Shown here: positions 5,193 through 14,498 of the stretch, in pieces
Position numbering within the stretch: position 1 is the first letter of the stretch
Layout of the letters: every line of letters starts with the position of its first letter
Source of the DNA: Tateyamaria omphalii
GTDB lineage: Bacteria > Pseudomonadota > Alphaproteobacteria > Rhodobacterales > Rhodobacteraceae
Assembly (NCBI RefSeq): GCF_001969365.1
Contig: NZ_CP019312.1
Span: 1,550,001-1,614,000 of the forward strand
Reading direction: 5' to 3'
Length of the DNA stretch: 64,000 bases
Position numbers and translations under genes: made by a program
The notes under the pieces: model-generated
What the model saw: only the letters and a program-made list of their open reading frames with translations
Told to the model about the DNA's origin: nothing
Databases searched by the model: none

Positions 5193-6740
5193 CTACCCGC
5201 GCCACAAATCGGGGGTGAAAAGGGCAATGATGGCCAGCGTCTCAAGCCGCCCAAGCACCATGGCAGCCGTAAAAATGGCCTTGGCGCCCGTGTTCAGCTC
5301 GGTCAGAGAGATGGGCACCTCCTTGGCCACCTCCAACAGCGGGCCGGTCGTCGACAGCCCTGACACCGCCAGCACCAGCGACGTGTCAAAGGGCAGACCG
5401 GTCAACGCCAGCAGAATGGTGATCAGCGCAAGGCTCAGCGCAAACAGCATGAAAAAGATCCACGCGATAAACGCCCCGTCCTTCTGCAACCGCCGCCCCC
5501 GTGGCCCCGCACTGCTGACAGAGGATGGATGCACCAGCCGCTCCATCTCGCGCACCCCGTTGCGATACAGCGCAAAGACGCGCAGCAGCTTCACGCCGCC
5601 CGCGGTCGTGGCCACCCCGCCGCCGATCAGCGCCAGCCCCATCAGCAACAGGCCCGGCGTCTCCAGCCCCGACCAGGCCTGCGCATCGACCCAATTGGCG
5701 GAGGCAAAGCCGGTCGTCGTTAAAAACGACAACACGGTGAACGCGCTGCCCCATAGCGCCCGGCCCGCGCTCAGCAGGTCCCGCTCGGCCTCGACGTCAT
5801 AGGCGCCCAGGAAGTGGCGCAGAAACAGGAAAACGGGCACGGCCAACACCACCAGCGCACCGATCCGGAACTCCGGATCTTGCCACAGCCCGCCGGATTC
5901 CGCGGTGGTCGTGTCGGTCGAAAAGGTCAGGCGCGACAGCGCGAACAGCATGAACAGCAGCATGACCGCCTCGCCCGCGATGCCCGAGCCCGCCGCACTC
6001 AGCCCGCCCACCGGCGAAATGCCGGACGTGGCCAGGATCGCCATCGCGTGGCAAAGGGCGACCAGCCCGACATCGCCGCCCACAGCCAGCAGCACCCACA
6101 AAAGCAGCGTCAGGCCCGTATAGATCGGGATCAGCACCGACGACACCTTCAGGATCCGCATCCGCACCTCTGCCCCGGACATCCCGATATCGCGGCTCGA
6201 ACTGCGGCCCGGCTCGGCCCGCGCCGTCACCTCGAACCCACCCAGGTTCAGGGGCGCCAGGATGGCCGACGCCGCAATCCACATCAGCAGACCACCCAGC
6301 CAGCCCACGATGGACCGCCACAGGTGCAAGGTGCCGTTCAGGCGCGCGGGATCGTCAAACAGCGTGGCCCCCGTGGTGGTGATCGCACTCACCATCTCCA
6401 CATAGGCGTTCAGAAACGTGGTGGTGCCCAACCCTTCGTAGAACGGCACCGCCAGGATCGCGGGCAGCACGGTAAAGGCGCTGAACAGCGACATGAGCGG
6501 GCCAAGGGTGCCATGCCCCGGATCGCGTCCCGCATGGGCGAGCCCGATCAGGGCAAACACCACCACGCCCAGCAGCCCCGCATACAGAAACGCGCGCGCC
6601 GCATCCAGATCGCGCACCATGCCGCCATAAACGGCGGGCACCAGCATCGCCGACGAAAAGACGCCCAGCAGCAGCAGAAACAGCGGCAATTGCAGGACAG
6701 AGGCCCAGAACGGCTGCTTCGGATGGGCGCGGTCCCCCAT
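5193..6740 (-). CDS. trkH: TrkH-family potassium uptake membrane protein
   Basis: 515 residues, strongly hydrophobic throughout, with four pore-loop repeats carrying the selectivity-filter glycine: 'AITTTGATLF', 'ATSGISPVGG', 'TTTGFASANW' and 'SGLSTTGPLLE'. This is the K+-conducting subunit of the Trk system in the inner membrane, gated by TrkA. The ATG at 6740 overlaps the trkA stop (TGATG), so the two subunits are translationally coupled. Confidence 0.95.
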   Translation of the reverse strand: MGDRAHPKQPFWASVLQLPLFLLLLGVFSSAMLVPAVYGGMVRDLDAARAFLYAGLLGVVVFALIGLAHAGRDPGHGTLGPLMSLFSAFTVLPAILAVPFYEGLGTTTFLNAYVEMVSAITTTGATLFDDPARLNGTLHLWRSIVGWLGGLLMWIAASAILAPLNLGGFEVTARAEPGRSSSRDIGMSGAEVRMRILKVSSVLIPIYTGLTLLLWVLLAVGGDVGLVALCHAMAILATSGISPVGGLSAAGSGIAGEAVMLLFMLFALSRLTFSTDTTTAESGGLWQDPEFRIGALVVLAVPVFLFLRHFLGAYDVEAERDLLSAGRALWGSAFTVLSFLTTTGFASANWVDAQAWSGLETPGLLLMGLALIGGGVATTAGGVKLLRVFALYRNGVREMERLVHPSSVSSAGPRGRRLQKDGAFIAWIFFMLFALSLALITILLALTGLPFDTSLVLAVSGLSTTGPLLEVAKEVPISLTELNTGAKAIFTAAMVLGRLETLAIIALFTPDLWRG

Positions 6741-8116
6741 CAGAAAAAGTCGATGGACACCTGCATCAGGCGCTCCACCTCGGGCACATCGGTGGCCAGG
6801 GCAAAGATGGCGACGACATCACCCTCGTCAATGCGGGTCTTGCCCACCGGGCGGATCACCTTGTCGCCCTTGCGCACCGCGCCGACCAGCACGCCTTCGG
6901 GAAAGTCGATCTCGTTGATGGTCTGGCCCGCCAGGGGCGAGGTCGACAGCACCTCCGCCTCGATCACCTCCGCATCCGCATCCCCGATGGAATAGACCGA
7001 GCGCACGCGCCCGTGCCGGATATGGCGCAGGATCGACGACACCGTCGTTGCGCGCGGATTGATATAGGCGTCGATGCCCAGGGCCCCCATCATCGGCACC
7101 AGCGTCGGATCGTTGATCAGCGCAATGGCGTAAGGACACCCCTCGGACTTGGCGCGCACAGCGGCCAGCATGTTGGTCTTGTCGTCGTCGGTCACGGCCA
7201 GCATGGCATCGGCCCGGCTCACCCCCGCCTCCGCCAGCAGGTTCACATCCAGCCCATCGCCATGCAGCACAATCGTCCGCTCCAGCGCCTCGGCGGCCAG
7301 CTCCGCACAGCGGCGGTTGCGCTCGATGACCTTGGCACGCACCCGGCCCGCACGGCCCTCAAGCGCGCGGGCCACGGTCAGACCCACATTGCCCCCGCCC
7401 ACCAGCACCACACGCTCCTGCTTGCGCATGGTCTTGCCAAAGACCTCCATGGTGCGCGGCACATCATCCACATGGGCAAAGACATAGGCCTCGTCCCCCG
7501 CAAACAGCTGATCCGACGCCTCGGGGGCAAAGAGCGTCCCCTCCCGGCGCACCCCCACGACCACAACGCGCAAGGTCGAAAAAAGGTCGGTCAACTGGCG
7601 CAGTGGCGTGTTCAGCACCGGACAATCCTCGTCCAGCGCAATGCCCAAAAGCTGCGCCTGCCCGTCAATGAACAGCTCCGTATCGAAGGCCGCAGGCGCG
7701 CTCAGCCGCTGCAACGCCGCCGCCGCCACCTCGCGCTCGGGGCTGATCACCACATCGATGGGCATGTGATCCCGGCGATACAGGTCCGAATAAATAGCGG
7801 TCAGATAGGACTGGCTGCGCAACCGCGCAATCTTGCGGTTCACCCCAAAGACGGAATGGGCCACCTGGCAGGTGACCATGTTCACCTCGTCCGAATAGGT
7901 GGCGGCGATGACCATATCGGCATCGCGGGCACCGGCACGGTCCAGCACGTCCGGATAGCTGGCAAAGCCCGCAACCCCCTGCACGTCCAGGGTATCGGTG
8001 GCGCGGCGCACGAGGTCGGGGTCGCTGTCGACCACCGTGACGTCATTGCGCTCGCCCGAAAGGTGGCGGGCAATCTGCCACCCCACCTGGCCTGCCCCGC
8101 AGATGATGACCTTCAT
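6740..8116 (-). CDS. trkA: Trk system potassium uptake regulator TrkA
   Basis: 458 residues from ATG 8116 (MKVIICGAGQVG). Two RCK units are visible: a first Rossmann motif 'GAGQVGWQIARHL' with Asp 'VVDSD', and a second 'VVLVGGGNVGLTVARAL'; each is followed by a TrkA_C domain, the last ending 'GDVVAIFALATDVPEVERLM'. It is a peripheral cytoplasmic subunit that binds NAD(H) or ATP and gates TrkH. An upstream in-frame extension of nine codons is less likely because the Rossmann fold normally begins at the second residue. First gene of the trkA-trkH pair. Confidence 0.95.
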   Translation of the reverse strand: MKVIICGAGQVGWQIARHLSGERNDVTVVDSDPDLVRRATDTLDVQGVAGFASYPDVLDRAGARDADMVIAATYSDEVNMVTCQVAHSVFGVNRKIARLRSQSYLTAIYSDLYRRDHMPIDVVISPEREVAAAALQRLSAPAAFDTELFIDGQAQLLGIALDEDCPVLNTPLRQLTDLFSTLRVVVVGVRREGTLFAPEASDQLFAGDEAYVFAHVDDVPRTMEVFGKTMRKQERVVLVGGGNVGLTVARALEGRAGRVRAKVIERNRRCAELAAEALERTIVLHGDGLDVNLLAEAGVSRADAMLAVTDDDKTNMLAAVRAKSEGCPYAIALINDPTLVPMMGALGIDAYINPRATTVSSILRHIRHGRVRSVYSIGDADAEVIEAEVLSTSPLAGQTINEIDFPEGVLVGAVRKGDKVIRPVGKTRIDEGDVVAIFALATDVPEVERLMQVSIDFF

Positions 8117-8556
8117 CCATGTCCCCGTGATGACGCGCCGCATCGCAGCACTCTCGGCCTCTGTGCATGACAGACGGGGGGCAAGGGGTCAACGCTTGGG
8201 GCTGGTTCAGGGGTGGTGGGGCGCGGTCTCAGGTTGTGTGTCGGGTTTGCGGACAGAGTTGCCGTTTGGCGAACGACTTTGTCCGCTGCTGGCGAGATTG
8301 GCGATCCGGACCCTTTGGCCATCGCCGCCCGCGGAGGATTAGCGGACGATGGCGCACATGTCGCTGTTGTGATGGGCCGTCGGCGGGGTGGTGCGGTCTG
8401 TGCGTTCCGCGGGCACTCTTGAGCGCATTTCTGTTCGCACCCTTCGCGAAGTTACGCCGACGACGGGCGGCTGGCCACTCTCGACTCGCGCGGCGGACTG
8501 GGCCGTGGCTATGATCTGATCAGGCATATTTTAACGATTGGGTCGGGGGCTTTTTA
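8117..8556. other. Intergenic region between trkA and vgrG, no gene recognised
   Basis: About 440 bp separating divergent genes. Open frames on both strands translate to Arg/Trp/Cys-rich protein without family resemblance and are taken as chance frames in GC-rich DNA. It should hold the trkA and vgrG promoters. Just before vgrG a G-run (cgggggc) stands about 9 bases from the ATG at 8557 as a possible weak ribosome-binding site. Confidence 0.5.
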
Positions 8557-10782
8557 ATGAACGTCGCGCGTGATTTTGTTCAAGCCGACCGCATCCTGCG
8601 CATCGCGACACCGCTTGGCGATGATATTCTGCTGGCGGAGAAACTCACGGTCAACGAACATGTCTCGGCGCTCTTCGAGATCACCGTGTCGGTGCGCTCC
8701 AAACAGCCCGAGATCGCGCCCGATCAGCTTCTGGGCAAGCCTGTCGACGTGAGCGTCGAGCTCAGCCAGGAGCCGCCTGTGCGCCGGACCTGGAACGCCA
8801 TCGTCACCGATCTGATCGCCGGCCCGCGCGCGAGCCGTGGCTTGCGCAGCTACCAGCTGGTGCTGCGCCCGGCGCTTTGGATGCTGGCCCAGAAGAGCGA
8901 CTGCCGCATCTGGCTGGACAAGAGCGCCACCGAGATTGCCGAGATCCTGTGCGCCGAGCATGGTCTGCCCGCGCCCGTGACCGCGGGCGTGGTCGACCCG
9001 GTGCCGCGGCAGCACTATTCCGTGCAGTGGAACGAGACGGATCTGGACTACCTGATGCGGCGGCTCCAGGAGGATGGCTTGTTCTTCTTCTGGCAGCATG
9101 AGGCGGGCGCGCATGACCTTCATATCGCCTCGCATGCGGCGGGCTATCTGACCGCGCTGGAAGGCGATGGCGATGTGCGCTTTGCGGCAGGCTCCACGGA
9201 CCGCAACCACATTAACCGCTTTGAAACGACCTTCCGTTACATCCCCGGCAGCCATGCGGGACGGGACTGGAACTTTACCACACCGGGCATGGTGCCGGGG
9301 GCGGCCGCGCCCGGCCTCGTGACGCTGCCGAAGAATGGCGGCTATGAGCTTTATGAGTACCCCGTGCAGGCGGGGTATGGCACGGGCACGCGCGCATCCG
9401 AGGGGATCGACGACGCCGAGGTCGAGCGTGTCGCGAAGCTGCGCATGCAGGCGCTGGAGGCCGAGCATGCGCGTGTCGAGGGCGCGAGCGCCGTGCGGAC
9501 GCTGGCACCGGGGCACCGCTTTACGCCCTATGATGTGGCGAACCCGGACACCGTGTTCGCCCCCCACACGATCCTGTCGATCGTCCATGAGGTGACGGAT
9601 ACAAGTTACGAAAGCGTCGAGAACCAGCCCGAATACCTCAACCGCTTCCTGGCGCTGCCTGCCGATGTGCCTGCCACGCCGCAACGCACGACCCCGCATC
9701 CGCGTATCGACGGCACGCAGGTGGCGATTGTTGCGGGCCCCGAGGGCGAAGAGATCCACCCCGACGAATACGGCCGCATCAAGCTGTGGTTCCCCTGGGA
9801 CCGCCGCGCGGCCAAGGACGGCAGCGACACCTGCTGGGTGCGCGTGACGCAGAACTGGGCGGGTGCCGGCTGGGGCGGGCAAGTGATCCCGCGCATCGGG
9901 ATGGAGGTCATGGTCAGCTACCTCGACGGCGATCCGGACCGCCCCGTGGTGACCGGCGTCGTGCCAAATGAGCGGCAGAAGGTGCCGTATGAGCTGCCCG
10001 CGAACAAGACGAAGAGCGTGATGCGCACCAACTCGCATAAATCGTCTGGCCACAACGAAATCACGTTTGAGGATGCAACAGGCGAGGAGGACATGTTCTT
10101 TCATGCCCAGAAAGACCAGACGATCAAGGTTCTGCACAACCGGGCTAAGCGGGTCGATAACGATCAGGTCGAGAGTGTTGGATCGAACAAAGCGATCGAT
10201 GTGAGCCTGAACCATCAGGAAAGCATTGGCGGATCGATGAACCTGAGCGTCGGTGGCGGCGGTGTTGGTATTGTTGGCCTTCTGGGGGGCATCGCTGCAG
10301 CGGGCGGCGCGGACGCTTTGGCCGGTTCCGAGGCTGTTGGTGACAGCGGTATTTCCGGCTTTGTGGGCAACCTTGCGCAGGCGGGCACCGTCATGGCCGG
10401 CTTGACGGCGCTGTCCAATGCAGGCTTTGCCGGGTCCGGTCATCACCGAGCCTTGGCGGGTGCCGAGACCGCGTCGGCGGGCACCAGGCTGGGCCAGCTT
10501 CTGTCAACCACCATGCCGATGTCCGGCATTCTCAATACCGTTGTCGAGAAGTTCCGCTCGGACACAATCGGGATGGCACGGACCGAGCAAATCGGACAAT
10601 TCAAAAACACCTCGGTCGGGCATACGATGACCGTGCACGTGGGCCAGGAATTCATCATAAATTGCGGCAAGTCCAAGTTCGTCATGGATCGCGACGGCAA
10701 CGTCACCATCATCGGCACCAAGTTCAATTTCTCCGCCACAGACCACATCCAGGCCAACGCCCGGATCATCGACCTGAATTGA
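8557..10782 (+). CDS. vgrG: Type VI secretion spike protein VgrG (TssI)
   Basis: 741 residues. The N-terminal gp27-like half includes 'NEHVSALFEITVSVRSK' and 'YSVQWNETDLDYLMRRLQED'. The gp5 OB-fold starts at about residue 388 ('EYGRIKLWFPWDRR', 'QNWAGAGWGGQVIPRIGMEV'), followed by the needle and beta-helix. Between about residues 555 and 650 a Gly/Ala-rich hydrophobic stretch interrupts the needle; beta-helix-like sequence resumes to the end ('MDRDGNVTIIGTKFNF'). VgrG trimers cap the Hcp tube and carry effectors out of the cell. No hcp, tss or clpV genes lie in this window, so this is an orphan vgrG. A 7-bp gap separates it from the PAAR-like effector. Confidence 0.95.
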   Translation: MNVARDFVQADRILRIATPLGDDILLAEKLTVNEHVSALFEITVSVRSKQPEIAPDQLLGKPVDVSVELSQEPPVRRTWNAIVTDLIAGPRASRGLRSYQLVLRPALWMLAQKSDCRIWLDKSATEIAEILCAEHGLPAPVTAGVVDPVPRQHYSVQWNETDLDYLMRRLQEDGLFFFWQHEAGAHDLHIASHAAGYLTALEGDGDVRFAAGSTDRNHINRFETTFRYIPGSHAGRDWNFTTPGMVPGAAAPGLVTLPKNGGYELYEYPVQAGYGTGTRASEGIDDAEVERVAKLRMQALEAEHARVEGASAVRTLAPGHRFTPYDVANPDTVFAPHTILSIVHEVTDTSYESVENQPEYLNRFLALPADVPATPQRTTPHPRIDGTQVAIVAGPEGEEIHPDEYGRIKLWFPWDRRAAKDGSDTCWVRVTQNWAGAGWGGQVIPRIGMEVMVSYLDGDPDRPVVTGVVPNERQKVPYELPANKTKSVMRTNSHKSSGHNEITFEDATGEEDMFFHAQKDQTIKVLHNRAKRVDNDQVESVGSNKAIDVSLNHQESIGGSMNLSVGGGGVGIVGLLGGIAAAGGADALAGSEAVGDSGISGFVGNLAQAGTVMAGLTALSNAGFAGSGHHRALAGAETASAGTRLGQLLSTTMPMSGILNTVVEKFRSDTIGMARTEQIGQFKNTSVGHTMTVHVGQEFIINCGKSKFVMDRDGNVTIIGTKFNFSATDHIQANARIIDLN

Positions 10783-10789
10783 GCGGGCG

Positions 10790-12229
10790 ATGAGCATCCC
10801 CCGCGAAGGCAGTCGTGACACCGGCAGCGGCATCATCATAAGCGTCACGCCTGATGTCTGTCGGACCCCTGTGGGCAGTTCGATGCCGCCGATCCCGTAT
10901 TGCATCTACGCGATCCAGGGTGACGACGCGAACACAGCAGCAACTGTTCGGATGACAGGCCAGCGGGCGCACAACATGGCGTCGATTGTCACCCAGTGCT
11001 CCGGCGATGCCCCCGGCACCGGCGGCGGCGTGTCCTCCGGCACCACTGGCAGCGTCTGCCACCCCCGCAGCCATTCCAACACCGTGCGCATCCAAGGCGA
11101 ATGGGCCGTCCGGCACAACGACTATTGGGACATGAACAACCGCAACACCTTCGGGCGACTGACATGGGTGGAAAGTGTTGAGACGTTTGAACCGACGCCG
11201 ACGATAACCAGAAACAATACTCCGGGAAGTGAATTGCCGCCGGGCTCGTTTCAAGTTGCCGATGCTTCTGGAGGTTGGTCATGGTTCGCACCGCCGGAAC
11301 CTGAAACGCTTCCAGAGATTGAAATTCCAGGAGCGGGTTCACCGCCTGCGGAAACCGCCCCAACCCAACCCGGGCCAGTAGGTCCAAACGACAATCGTGA
11401 TCGCAGACCTCCGGCAACACCCAACCCGATTTTAATGCAGCTCAGGTTGATCGGTGAACTCTTCAGCAGTCTTGGACGCCAAGCAGATATTTACGAGGAA
11501 ATGGAGCGCACCATCACTGTGCCTGACGGGGAAGGTGGGTTTCGTCATGTCACGCCAGAACAGCTGGAACGTGAATTGATGCGTGAGCTCGGCGTCGAGA
11601 CAGATGAGGAATTGGCGGAACTCATCGAGCGTCTTGAAGCGGAGGAAAGAACTGAAGCCGAGACCACCGTAGATGCCGAGTCGGGCCGCACCGAGGATAC
11701 GGTCACGATCCATGGTGACGAAGAACAGCGCGATGAACCTGAGTGTCGCATTGGACCACATTCCGAAATGTTGCCGGCCTGCCGCGCCCTCGGCATGCAA
11801 GCCCACCATGTCGTACCTGATCGCAGTTTTCGCGTAGCAGGCCCGCGCGGCGCCCGCATGGTCGGAGGCCCCAGTTACGGCGAAGGCCTTGCGGTTTGTG
11901 TCGAATCCAACCGAGTTGGAAGGGATGCGGAACATTCCGTGATTCACAATGTCTATTTCGATCCACAAGCTGACTTCGAAGCACGAACTGGCTCTCACCC
12001 ACCTTTCATTACGCTGGCGCGGGCCGAAGATCTGGGTGCTCAGGCGCTGGAAATTGGCACGGATGGCCGGTGCCGCCGAGAATTCATTCGCAACGAATTA
12101 CGTCGCTACCATTCGTCATCGCAATTTACCTTGGAGCCTGACACCTTGGTGCGCGGCACGCGCCGCAGGATTGGCTTGTTAAACATCCGGCAGTTTGGTG
12201 GACGTCCTGGCGGAGCAGACGAAAGGTAA
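10790..12229 (+). CDS. PAAR-like (DUF4150) protein with C-terminal AHH-type nuclease domain, putative T6SS effector
   Basis: 479 residues. Residues 1 to about 115 resemble DUF4150 PAAR-like tips ('PDVCRTPVGSSMPPIPY', 'GGVSSGTTG', then an 'NTVRIQGEWAVRHND' block). A Pro-rich linker (about 178-210) and an acidic helical segment follow. From about residue 320 comes a compact domain with Cys residues and 'GMQAHHVVPDRSF', in which A338-H339-H340 match the AHH motif of HNH/endonuclease VII-fold toxins; 'SVIHNVYFD' may supply the second metal-site His/Asn. This is the layout of an 'evolved' PAAR effector: tip domain, linker, toxin. Predicted to be a DNase delivered by the upstream VgrG. From about 11.2 kb the base composition appears less GC-rich than vgrG by eye, suggesting a swapped toxin cassette. 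Confidence 0.75.
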   Translation: MSIPREGSRDTGSGIIISVTPDVCRTPVGSSMPPIPYCIYAIQGDDANTAATVRMTGQRAHNMASIVTQCSGDAPGTGGGVSSGTTGSVCHPRSHSNTVRIQGEWAVRHNDYWDMNNRNTFGRLTWVESVETFEPTPTITRNNTPGSELPPGSFQVADASGGWSWFAPPEPETLPEIEIPGAGSPPAETAPTQPGPVGPNDNRDRRPPATPNPILMQLRLIGELFSSLGRQADIYEEMERTITVPDGEGGFRHVTPEQLERELMRELGVETDEELAELIERLEAEERTEAETTVDAESGRTEDTVTIHGDEEQRDEPECRIGPHSEMLPACRALGMQAHHVVPDRSFRVAGPRGARMVGGPSYGEGLAVCVESNRVGRDAEHSVIHNVYFDPQADFEARTGSHPPFITLARAEDLGAQALEIGTDGRCRREFIRNELRRYHSSSQFTLEPDTLVRGTRRRIGLLNIRQFGGRPGGADER

Positions 12230-12232
12230 AGT

Positions 12233-13285
12233 ATGCAAGACGACATCCAAGCATTGATTGATGAGGGGATGATCGATCCCTCAAACACCGAGTTTACGAT
12301 CATCACCGGGGCGGCCATCGAAGCAGATTACATGCTTTTTCTTGAGACGGCTGATGCCTACGCTGAGGTTGCCGATGAGATAGAATTGACATTTGTTACC
12401 ACTTGGAACGGCCAAAATGAAGCTGTTCCATGGCGACAGAACCCCCACGAATGGCAAGGCGCCAGCTGCTGCGTCTGGCGCAGCTTTCCACAAACTCGGC
12501 TTTACGTTGCGCTATCGCTGGATGGCCACGTTCATATGTTCGGTCCCGGCGGGCGCCCTACGATGAATGAGACAATTCAAGGGGCGGGCCGAATGATGCC
12601 CTGGTCGAACGATGAATATGTTACAACACAACAAATTCGCGAGATTGGGTCTTCACTCTACGTGGTTGGAAGCAATCGCAAAGTCTTCCGTCGGGCTCCA
12701 ACGCCAGATGCCACTTGGGAAATGATCTCCGCAGAAATCCAGAACGAGGCGTTCAATCGGGAAACGGGCCTCCGTGATATGACCCTCATGAGCCATTTTT
12801 TTGGTGTTCATGGCAGGGTCGAGACTAGTATTTTCACCTGTGGCGTTTCTGGTGAGGTCTTCCACTTTGACGGCAGCAATTGGTCAGAGGTACCAACAGG
12901 CACGCACAAACACTTGTTGGACGTTCACGTTGCCTCCGACGGCACCGTCTACGTGATCGGTGCAGACGGCACATTTTTGCGCGGAGATGCGAGCGGATTG
13001 CGTCCGGCGACTGAAACGCCCTTGCCGGATCGCCCCTATCTGACCGGCATCGCTGAACGAGACGGCGCCATTTGGATCGCGGGAAACCGGGGACTTTATC
13101 GTTATGATCCGAACACCGAAACTGCGGAACGCATACGGCCCGAAGGCTCGACCGAGATTAATGATTTCCATCATCTTTCGGTAGCTGATGGCGTTCTTTG
13201 GAGTATCGGCTTCAAAGACCTCGCGTATTTCGATGGTTCGTTCTGGACACGCCTTGCACACCCGGAAAATGGCCCTCGCACATAA
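12233..13285 (+). CDS. Beta-propeller-like protein, candidate immunity protein for the upstream nuclease
   Basis: 350 residues, starting 3 bases after the effector stop. The first ~100 residues are acidic with no recognised family. The rest shows about six similar blade-like units of 45-50 residues: 'LYVALSLDGHVHMFG', 'LYVVGSNRKVFRR', 'TCGVSGEVFHFDGSNW', 'VYVIGADGTFLRGD', 'IWIAGNRGLYRYD' and 'LWSIGFKDLAYFDGSFW'. There is no signal peptide or membrane segment, so it is probably cytoplasmic, as expected if it protects DNA from a cytoplasmic nuclease. The immunity role is inferred only from position: polymorphic toxins are normally followed at once by their antidote. It looks less GC-rich than flanking genes. 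Confidence 0.6.
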   Translation: MQDDIQALIDEGMIDPSNTEFTIITGAAIEADYMLFLETADAYAEVADEIELTFVTTWNGQNEAVPWRQNPHEWQGASCCVWRSFPQTRLYVALSLDGHVHMFGPGGRPTMNETIQGAGRMMPWSNDEYVTTQQIREIGSSLYVVGSNRKVFRRAPTPDATWEMISAEIQNEAFNRETGLRDMTLMSHFFGVHGRVETSIFTCGVSGEVFHFDGSNWSEVPTGTHKHLLDVHVASDGTVYVIGADGTFLRGDASGLRPATETPLPDRPYLTGIAERDGAIWIAGNRGLYRYDPNTETAERIRPEGSTEINDFHHLSVADGVLWSIGFKDLAYFDGSFWTRLAHPENGPRT

Positions 13286-13436
13286 AGGAAGTGCCGCTCG
13301 TTGCTGAGTTCAACTGGAAGGTGGTGGTCGCGTCATCGGATTGAGGTCCGCAGAGCACTAAGAACGAGATCATACTAAGGGCAACGGTCGATTGGGTGGC
13401 GTGCCGCCACTATCTGCGCAAAGGGAACGAAGCCCC

Positions 13437-14498
13437 ATGCTAGTTGACAACACGACGCCCTTTTCTGGCCTTGGCTTTGAGCAATGGCACCGGGATGGGG
13501 CGACAATGGCGGTTGTGGTCGCGCGGGGGCGGTATGTGGTGCAACCCGATGGGTCCCTGGACGCCGCGGACCGCCCGGAGTTGATCCTGAGCGATGTGTT
13601 TGAAGGCGGGCCACAGGACAGCGACATGCTGGTCGCGTCGGATCTGGTGCCGTTCAAGCCCGCGACTGACGTGACATATCTGGGCGCGATACATGCCGCA
13701 GAGCCAAGCGATGCGATCCTTGCGGGGATCCAGATCGGCGACCATGTTGCCGTGCTGCGCGCCGTGGGTGAGCGGTCTTGGATCTGCGACAAGGACACGT
13801 GGCACCTCACCCAGCCTGACCCCATCCAGCAGGCCGATCTCACCTATTGCCATGCCAGCGGTGGGCGCCACATCGGCGATCCCGATGGCCAGGTCGATGC
13901 GCGCAATCCCATTGGCCCGGGGGTCATCAGCCTGGATCACACCCCGACAGATGCGCAGATCCCGGCCCCCAGAATCGACAGTGAACACGTGCCGGTGACC
14001 GAAGATCTGTCACATTGGCCCGCCCCCCAGGGCTTTGGCCCGATGCCGCCCTGGTGGCGCAGCCGACAGCAATTTGCGGGCACCTATGACGAGGAGTGGC
14101 AGGCGAACCAGCATCCCCGCCTGCCGAAGGATTTCGACTACCGCTTCTACAATTGCGCCCCGCCCGCGCTCATCCAGCCTGGGTTTCTAACGGGAGACGA
14201 GGTGATCCAGACGGTGGGTCTGCGCCGCGGTGCCGCGCGGCTCGACATCCAACTGCCAGGCCTGCAACCCTGGGCGCGGTTCCACTTCCGCGATGGCCGC
14301 GATGTGGAGGCTCTGTTGAGCCTCGACGGTGTGCATCTGGATGTCCGAGGGGAGACGACGCAACTCGATCTCACTTGGCGGGCCTGGATGGCGATCTGCC
14401 CATCCTTCTATCGCATCGATCTCCATCATGCGCCTCTAAGCCGCATCCGTGAGATGTCACTACCGATCTCGCGTCTACATGGGTTGGAAGAGGCGTGA
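13437..14498 (+). CDS. DUF2169 protein, T6SS effector-loading adaptor
   Basis: 353 residues from ATG 13437 (MLVDNTTPFSGLGFE); an upstream TTG in the same frame has no family support. Typical DUF2169 features are the N-terminal 'NTTPF..' strand, 'VVVARGRYVVQPDG', 'FKPATDVTYLG' and the late 'FYNCAPPALIQPGFLTGDE' block, with a C-terminal 'PWARFHFRDGRD'. In Agrobacterium a DUF2169 protein is encoded with vgrG and a nuclease effector and acts as adaptor or chaperone. Its presence here supports the reading of the cluster as a T6SS cargo unit. 151 bp separate it from the propeller gene, so it may have its own promoter. Confidence 0.85.
   Translation: MLVDNTTPFSGLGFEQWHRDGATMAVVVARGRYVVQPDGSLDAADRPELILSDVFEGGPQDSDMLVASDLVPFKPATDVTYLGAIHAAEPSDAILAGIQIGDHVAVLRAVGERSWICDKDTWHLTQPDPIQQADLTYCHASGGRHIGDPDGQVDARNPIGPGVISLDHTPTDAQIPAPRIDSEHVPVTEDLSHWPAPQGFGPMPPWWRSRQQFAGTYDEEWQANQHPRLPKDFDYRFYNCAPPALIQPGFLTGDEVIQTVGLRRGAARLDIQLPGLQPWARFHFRDGRDVEALLSLDGVHLDVRGETTQLDLTWRAWMAICPSFYRIDLHHAPLSRIREMSLPISRLHGLEEA

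What the first reader, a model, noticed from the sequence alone, without database searches (positions are those of the whole stretch)
12233..13285. Six-blade beta-propeller protein as a possible new immunity type for an AHH nuclease
It begins 3 bases after a predicted nuclease effector, lacks a signal peptide, and shares the shifted composition. Immunity proteins are usually small and single-domain (for example SUKH, Imm families). A 350-residue propeller with an acidic 100-residue N-terminal domain would be an unusual antidote, possibly binding the toxin by its acidic part while the propeller acts as scaffold.
Basis: inference. Interest (0 to 1): 0.75.

Follow-up and report, generated by a model that had tools for sequence, protein, structure and literature searches.

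The report
Propeller antidote for a T6SS nuclease
A gene directly behind a bacterial nuclease weapon almost certainly encodes its antidote, probably shaped like a propeller; an antidote of this kind has already been shown in Proteus, so this is a new branch of a known kind and not a new kind.

Summary
The gene at 12233-13285 is real: 350 aa, 3 bases after a Tox-PAAR-like/AHH toxin (10790-12229), in an orphan VgrG island. The immunity reading is well supported; "new immunity type" is not. In 398 genomes of the phylum 8 carry the propeller and 10 the toxin, 7 both; two more toxin genomes have a divergent propeller next door. In 158 genomes of a Pseudomonas family all 13 with the propeller have it directly behind a toxin. 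Propeller divergence tracks the toxin's nuclease domain (Mantel r 0.61, n 37; 0.46 given the delivery domain), not the delivery domain (0.07). But 24 of 65 propeller arrays have no recognised toxin upstream; I read them as orphan immunity. Precedent: Proteus PefE, a predicted 7-blade propeller, is the tested immunity protein of PefD (PAAR-like + Tox-GHH2). Propellers behind Tox-GHH2 toxins belong to the window's family by profile; PefE itself was not compared. Corrections: the acidic N-terminus is not a family feature; allele variation points to residues ~50-225 for recognition; blade number stays open (structure prediction off). VgrG is 98% identical to a second copy up to 10158: the module was grafted there. 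New member of a known kind.

The parts
8557..10782 (+). VgrG spike protein (741 aa)
   Evidence: TIGR03361 E 2.6e-150; DNA 8277-10158 is 97.9% identical to a second vgrG locus of the same genome, the match ends at 10158
10159..14498 (+). Grafted module: VgrG tail, PAAR-like/AHH toxin, propeller, DUF2169 chaperone
   Evidence: Blastn match to the second vgrG locus stops at 10158; GC3 0.82 before, 0.74 in the VgrG tail. The right-hand limit is inferred
10790..12229 (+). Tox-PAAR-like (DUF4150/PIPY) effector with C-terminal AHH-type nuclease domain (479 aa)
   Evidence: PF13665 E 1.5e-32; PIPY at residue 34, AHH at 338-340; nuclease domain assigned through relatives, no direct Pfam match
11231..13285 (+). 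Most deviant stretch: toxin after the PAAR-like domain plus propeller (GC3 0.52-0.56)
   Evidence: reading as toxin-antidote cassette is inference
11711..12229 (+). Toxin C-terminal nuclease domain: AHH 11801-11809; His 339/340/382/386 and Cys 319/331/370/428
   Evidence: All eight columns invariant in the 10 sequences of A6; in the 19 of A3 only C370, H382, C428 are strictly invariant; positions
12221..12226 (+). Ribosome-binding-like GAAAGG in the toxin's last codons, suggesting coupled translation of the propeller
   Evidence: Read from sequence; inference
12233..13285 (+). Propeller protein, inferred immunity protein of the toxin (350 aa, cytoplasmic)
12491..13243 (+). Blade repeats ~45 aa apart in the propeller (residues 87-337; strong to 283, weaker beyond)
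   Evidence: hhalign self-comparison
12380..12907 (+). Predicted toxin-recognition region (residues ~50-225), transferred from variable regions of relatives
   Evidence: A. vitis group alleles vary here and are 97-98% identical on average in columns 251-350; PefE specificity at aa 136-158 (PMC5714391). Inference
13392..14498 (+). DUF2169 protein, chaperone of PAAR-like spikes (true start may be the ATG at 13437)
   Evidence: PF09937 E 1.7e-72; function from PMC11883445

Best explanation
The 350-aa propeller is the cytoplasmic immunity protein of the AHH-type nuclease encoded 3 bases upstream. The effector is mounted on VgrG through its PAAR-like (PIPY) domain with the DUF2169 chaperone and fired by the T6SS whose sheath genes lie ~495 kb away; its C-terminal His-Me/HNH nuclease degrades DNA in neighbouring cells. 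The propeller stays in the producer, binds the nuclease domain directly with one face of its variable blades (residues ~50-225) and keeps the active site from DNA. Toxin domain and propeller move as one cassette and diverge together; spare propellers collect in arrays against other strains' toxins. Shown here: gene order, family membership, co-occurrence, co-divergence, graft junction, T6SS sheath genes in the genome. Inferred: nuclease activity, direct binding, binding face, protection. Shown elsewhere for the same kind of pair: PefE protects against PefD.
For: Phylum sample of 398 genomes: propeller in 8 (E<=1e-15), toxin in 10 (E<=1e-6), 7 shared; hypergeometric 3e-12, 1e-10 without the own genome (genomes are not independent). 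Of the 3 toxin-only genomes two have a divergent propeller next door (G506, G720), one (G765, weakest toxin match) has none. Class sample of 385: the same two genomes carry both. Family of the Pseudomonas genome G930: 13 of 158 genomes have the propeller, in each at least one copy directly behind a toxin (G930 itself, the query). Plasmids searched by toxin: 17 records; 11 fetched, 10 with a propeller next and one with a 71-aa remnant frame; the other 6 have adjacent match coordinates. Mantel propeller-toxin domain r 0.61 p 2e-4 (n 37); given the PAAR-like domain 0.46 p 0.002 (n 19); propeller-PAAR given toxin 0.07 p 0.24. Three A. vitis group toxins: lowest identity 96-100% per bin over columns 1-350, 57-76% beyond; propellers vary most at columns 151-200. 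Window-type profile A2 matches propellers behind GHH2-type toxins in one collinear piece, control propellers in scattered blades; profile-profile E 3.4e-50. The propeller is the only plausible gene between toxin and DUF2169. Two PF05943 (TssC) genes in the own genome.
Against: 24 of 65 propeller arrays have no recognised toxin directly upstream; I read them as orphan immunity, but they could mean another role. In PMC5714391 PefE rescued E. coli from PefD on plates, while the legend of S2 Fig says it did not restore growth in liquid (passages). PefE is also needed for killing (PMC3764213), so the role may not be immunity alone. The window toxin's nuclease domain has no direct Pfam match. In one search two control propellers reach summed E-values (1e-26, 3e-25) as good as the weakest family members, so only collinearity separates them, and the same-genus propeller of L108 is not matched at all by A2. 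PefE and Tsi7 sequences were not compared. No complex was modelled and no structure was available. Only sheath genes of the T6SS were looked for.
Confidence: 0.87

Rival explanations
1. Dual role: the propeller is immunity protein and is also needed for toxin stability, loading or killing, as described for PefE.
For: PefE mutants lose killing as well as immunity (PMC3764213, PMC5714391; passages). In the fetched loci 51 of 54 toxin frames have a propeller match downstream.
Against: PMC5714391 notes likely polar effects of the mutations; delivery has its own chaperone, DUF2169 (PMC11883445); the E. coli locus that I read keeps propellers beside toxin and PAAR-like remnants only.
Confidence: 0.25
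2. The propeller is only a delivery adaptor or chaperone of the effector, not an antidote.
For: Genetic linkage to VgrG, PAAR-like and DUF2169 genes.
Against: Co-divergence is with the toxin domain and not with the delivery domain; some propellers lie away from any annotated VgrG or PAAR-like gene (L010) or in tandem arrays; PefE alone protects target cells (PMC5714391).
Confidence: 0.04
3. The propeller protects without binding the toxin, for example by shielding or repairing DNA.
For: Not excluded by genomics; binding was not tested.
Against: Allele-specific immunity of PefE and PefE2 mapped to a region where they differ in three residues (PMC5714391) and matched variation of toxin tail and propeller fit direct recognition.
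Confidence: 0.04
4. The propeller is a second effector or an unrelated passenger gene.
For: Propellers are common folds; position alone does not prove function.
Against: The same pair recurs across Alpha-, Beta- and Gammaproteobacteria and in a Sorangium genome bin; no Pfam secretion domain; same order, toxin then propeller, mostly within a few tens of bases.
Confidence: 0.03

Closest known systems
PefD-PefE (Proteus mirabilis pef operon; PMC3764213, PMC5714391, passages)
   Same: PAAR-like N-terminus with HNH-type nuclease C-terminus; next gene a 320-aa predicted propeller shown to be the immunity protein; second copy PefE2 with allele-specific protection; variable regions on one side of the model
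   Different: PefD carries Tox-GHH2, the window an AHH-type domain without Pfam match; pef is a type A operon (thiolase-like and armadillo-like genes), the window lacks these. Sequence of PefE not compared here
Tse7-Tsi7 (Pseudomonas aeruginosa PA0099-PA0100; PMC9846239, PMC11883445, passages)
   Same: DUF4150 + Tox-GHH2 with immunity gene next; L051 from Pseudomonas sp. PA27 has VgrG, DUF2169, a thiolase-like gene (weak Pfam matches), PAAR-like + Tox-GHH2, propeller, TIGR02270 in that order
   Different: I did not see Tsi7's fold stated (search 124 found no paper with both words) or compare its sequence; that Tsi7 is a propeller is inference from position and from the PefE orthologue reported in the HSI-1 locus (PMC3764213)
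V2a-V3a (Agrobacterium tumefaciens 1D1609; PMC6971182, PMC10902643, passages)
   Same: DUF4150 + Tox-AHH DNase with VgrG, DUF2169 and a downstream immunity gene; AHH histidines needed
   Different: vgrGa lies in the main T6SS cluster, not in an orphan module; family of V3a not tested here; V2a was not aligned with the window toxin
Tsi1 of P. aeruginosa (PMC3391265, passages)
   Same: T6SS immunity protein with a propeller-like beta fold that inhibits its toxin
   Different: Fragmentary propeller, periplasmic, against a peptidoglycan hydrolase

Membership tests
Cognate T6SS immunity protein | Encoded directly next to the toxin, same strand | tested here: met
   3-base gap, same frame
Cognate T6SS immunity protein | Pair conserved and co-occurring in other genomes | tested here: met
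   7 genomes shared of 8 and 10 in 398; 13 of 13 in the family of G930. Not universal: 24 of 65 arrays lack a recognised toxin
Cognate T6SS immunity protein | Co-divergence with the toxin domain | tested here: met
   Mantel 0.61, partial 0.46
Cognate T6SS immunity protein | Neutralises and binds its toxin | not testable with these tools
   Needs bench work; no complex model made
PefE-type propeller immunity | Sequence relationship along the whole length to propellers that follow PAAR-like + Tox-GHH2 toxins | tested here: met
   hhalign E 3.4e-50 over 289 columns; single collinear domain hits covering model 13-328 at best and 44-279 at least, of 337, controls only in pieces
PefE-type propeller immunity | Direct sequence match to PefE itself | not tested
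PefE-type propeller immunity | Propeller fold | tested here: inconclusive
   Repeats and profile matches support a propeller; blade number open, no structure
Tox-AHH / Tox-GHH2 nuclease toxin (HNH/EndoVII) | Match to Pfam PF14412 or PF15635 | tested here: not met
   Window domain: none at E<=1; in the same alignment Tox-GHH2 matches 7 of 19, best 1e-18, and AHH 3 of 19, best 0.032. AHH-like by motif and alignment, not a Pfam member
Tox-AHH / Tox-GHH2 nuclease toxin (HNH/EndoVII) | [AG]HH motif and downstream His | tested here: met
   AHH 338-340, H382, H386; both His pairs invariant in the 10 sequences of A6
DUF2169/DUF4150 synteny type B (PMC11883445) | VgrG, DUF2169 and DUF4150 genes together without type A genes | tested here: met
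   here DUF2169 lies downstream of the effector and propeller genes

The most novel reading that the evidence does not exclude
One unnamed propeller family is a dedicated antidote scaffold for a whole branch of HNH/EndoVII T6SS nucleases (with AHH, SHH or GHH2-type sites), spread over Proteobacteria and Sorangium, with copies lacking a recognised toxin in Archangium and Flavobacterium. It evolves new specificities by varying the first blades while the last blades are kept constant between tandem copies by recombination, and it accumulates in arrays as a library of protections.
Probability: 0.5. Interest if true: 0.5.

Novelty: new member of a known kind. Interest (0 to 1): 0.36.

Why it matters
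It gives a likely function to a family for which the window protein has no Pfam (above cut-off), NCBIfam, PHROGs or PADLOC match and which records label hypothetical or 'beta propeller repeat protein'; one E. coli member is present in 151 of 5426 complete E. coli genomes. It extends the PefE finding from Proteus to a broad family and to AHH-type toxins, predicts where the propeller recognises its nuclease, and offers natural allele sets (A. vitis tandem copies) in which specificity can be tested directly.

Tried and rejected
Structure prediction of propeller and toxin domain: switched off, so no fold search; blade number left open. The viral-contig scan gave no relative. The genome-contig scan with alignment A1 found no conserved stretch; the narrower A2 worked. 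Rejected: acidic N-terminal domain as toxin binder; 'new immunity type'; delivery adaptor as sole role. Weak propeller hits in 4 of the 147 other genomes (E 1e-4 to 8e-4) are probably generic propellers. As a control I scored the longest frame of each of these six loci with profile A2: L002 and L006 gave scattered blade matches, L005 nothing significant; for L003, L004 and L007 the longest frame was not the frame that had matched (lengths), so those three are no valid control. A GC3 value of 0.58 for the VgrG tail was computed off frame; one search gives 0.74. Rows dropped: 51 pairs became 45 (short toxin or propeller) and 37 after dereplication at 25% propeller distance; 19 of them had a PAAR-like domain. 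In one search, 20 of the 41 adjacent toxins were seeds of the toxin models; of the 45 other arrays 21 have an adjacent match, 7 of them close copies of seeds. Agrobacterium V3a was not compared. Of the 5 genomes with a match I examined the context of one. Papers: passages (with abstract where shown) of PMC3391265, PMC3482391, PMC3533786, PMC10933484, PMC5714391, PMC3764213, PMC11883445, PMC9846239, PMC10902643, PMC6971182; others seen only in search listings. Statements on what is in print rest on searches in a library of open papers only.

Full report
What is there. The island runs VgrG (8557-10782), a Tox-PAAR-like effector (10790-12229), the propeller (12233-13285) and DUF2169 (13392-14498) on one strand. 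The propeller starts three bases after the effector's stop, in the same frame, with a ribosome-binding-like stretch in the effector's last codons. It has no Pfam match above cut-off (Tectonin at E 0.15) and none in NCBIfam, PHROGs or PADLOC. The genome has two adjacent TssC-family genes at C1:2056-2058 kb, about 495 kb from the island, so I take this as an orphan VgrG module; the rest of the T6SS was not looked for.

Origin of the module. DNA 8277-10158 is 97.9% identical to a second vgrG locus of the same genome (L110) and the match stops at 10158. GC3 is 0.82 before that point, 0.74 in the VgrG tail, 0.75 in the PAAR-like domain, 0.52-0.54 in the rest of the toxin, 0.56 in the propeller and 0.73 in DUF2169. 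So a module was grafted behind a shared VgrG body, and within it the toxin part behind the PAAR-like domain and the propeller share the most deviant composition.

The fold. A profile of 33 sequences aligned with itself shows repeats about 45 residues apart over 87-283 (E 1.6e-5) and more weakly to 337 (E 0.004); cut into single units, four resemble each other in part, 68-116 none clearly. Profile A1 matches designed and natural propellers in the PDB (best E 6e-17). Six or seven blades are possible; others predicted seven for PefE. The acidity of residues 1-65 (net -15) is not a family trait (median -4).

The toxin. It carries PIPY (residue 34) and AHH (338-340). Its nuclease domain has no direct Pfam match, but aligned relatives match Tox-GHH2 (7 of 19, best 1e-18) and AHH (3 of 19, best 0.032). 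Four His and four Cys columns are invariant in the ten sequences of A6; in the wider set A3 of 19 only C370, H382 and C428 are strictly so.

Relatives and neighbours. Propellers came from plasmids (33 records matched; part of them fetched), genome contigs (32 loci), E. coli and whole genomes. In 55 partly redundant sources I counted 65 propeller arrays; 41 have an HNH/EndoVII-type toxin directly upstream. Twenty of these toxins seeded the two toxin models, so the independent figure is 21 of 45, seven of the 21 being close copies of seeds. The 24 arrays without a recognised toxin include multi-copy loci (L041, L049, L050, L056) and a lone gene among transporter genes (L010). From the other side, of 54 toxin frames (some are pieces) in the fetched loci 51 have a propeller match downstream; the three exceptions are a contig edge (L047), a 71-residue remnant frame (L085) and a divergent propeller found at E 3.6e-12 (L088).

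Samples not chosen by adjacency. In 398 genomes of the phylum the propeller is in 8 and the toxin in 10, with 7 in common (hypergeometric 3e-12, or 1e-10 without the own genome; several genomes are close kin). Two of the three toxin-only genomes (G506, G720) have a divergent propeller next to the toxin; G765, the weakest toxin match, has none. The propeller-only genome is G830. In 385 genomes of the class both are found in the same two genomes. In 158 genomes of the family of G930 (the Pseudomonas genome of L051) 13 have the propeller, and in each at least one copy directly follows a toxin (G930). Of 17 plasmid records found by the toxin I fetched 11: ten have a propeller next, one a remnant; the six others have adjacent coordinates.

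Co-divergence. In 37 dereplicated pairs propeller distance follows toxin-domain distance (Mantel r 0.61, p 2e-4). In the 19 pairs with a PAAR-like domain the partial correlation given that domain is 0.46 (p 0.002), while propeller and PAAR-like domain given the toxin give 0.07 (p 0.24). In three loci of the A. vitis group (two A. vitis, one Allorhizobium ampelinum) mean effector identity per 50-column bin is 97-100% over columns 1-350 and 69-81% beyond; the six tandem propellers fall to 59% in columns 151-200 and reach 97-98% in 251-350. That fits recognition of the variable toxin tail by the first blades. PefE's specificity lies at residues 136-158 (PMC5714391).

Relation to what is known. 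In P. mirabilis PefE (PMI0756), predicted as a 7-bladed propeller (PMC3764213) of 320 aa (PMC5714391), protects against PefD, a PAAR-like protein with Tox-GHH2 nuclease; PefE and PefE2 are allele specific. The same paper reports rescue of E. coli on plates but, in S2 Fig, none in liquid. In L051 (Pseudomonas) and L014 (Caballeronia) a propeller sits between a Tox-GHH2 effector and a TIGR02270 gene, resembling the type A clusters described for pef and tse7; that TIGR02270 is the armadillo-like gene of that paper is my inference. The window-type profile A2, built without these, matches propellers of L051, L050, L014, L066, Marilutibacter and E. coli in one collinear piece (whole-protein E 9e-26 to 4e-51 for a database of a million, model 44-279 at the shortest and 13-328 at the longest of 337). 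Two control propellers (P0016, P0017) reach E 1e-26 and 3e-25 in sum, but only as eight or nine scattered blade matches. The very divergent same-genus propeller of L108 is not matched by A2 and only at E 6.5e-5 by A1. Profile A2 against A4 gives E 3.4e-50 over 289 columns. PefE and Tsi7 themselves were not compared. So the window protein belongs to a family that by position includes the tested antidote, and the 'new immunity type' claim falls.

Most likely mechanism and verdict. Cytoplasmic antidote that binds the nuclease domain; direct binding, its face and the block of the active site are inferred. The main rival is an additional role in delivery. New member of a known kind; moderate interest.

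Noticed in passing
window 8277-10158 and L110 (own genome C1:2965000-2976000): VgrG body and its upstream stretch are 97.9% identical between two loci of the genome and the match breaks off at 10158, a clean case of VgrG tail and effector module exchange. The second locus has DUF2169, a short PAAR-like protein and a 1400-aa protein instead.
   Followed up: partly
L108 (same-genus genome G003), reverse strand 6048-8058: A cluster with DUF2169 and another PAAR-like protein bearing a QAHHIIPD motif, followed by a very divergent propeller (E 6.5e-5 with A1, no match with A2): probably the same pairing in a sibling species.
   Followed up: partly
L018 6137-10064 (E. coli, next to cus genes): Remnant of a Tox-GHH2 toxin, two propellers, a PAAR-like remnant and a third propeller; the third is present in 151 of 5426 complete E. 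coli genomes (148 with at least 80% of the query), apparently as orphan immunity.
   Followed up: partly
L041, L047, L049, L050, L056: Loci with four to six propeller frames each, some of them broken, resembling polyimmunity loci built from one family.
   Followed up: no
L009, L015, L020 (Agrobacterium vitis and Allorhizobium ampelinum plasmids): Tandem propellers share a nearly identical C-terminal third, suggesting gene conversion that leaves only the N-terminal part variable.
   Followed up: partly
L013 and L088: Propellers lie beside GAD-like domain genes in Rhizobium VgrG islands; L088 carries three GAD-like genes between two propeller genes.
   Followed up: no
L065 (G830): A propeller of the family in a phylum genome without any recognised toxin nearby.
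   Followed up: no
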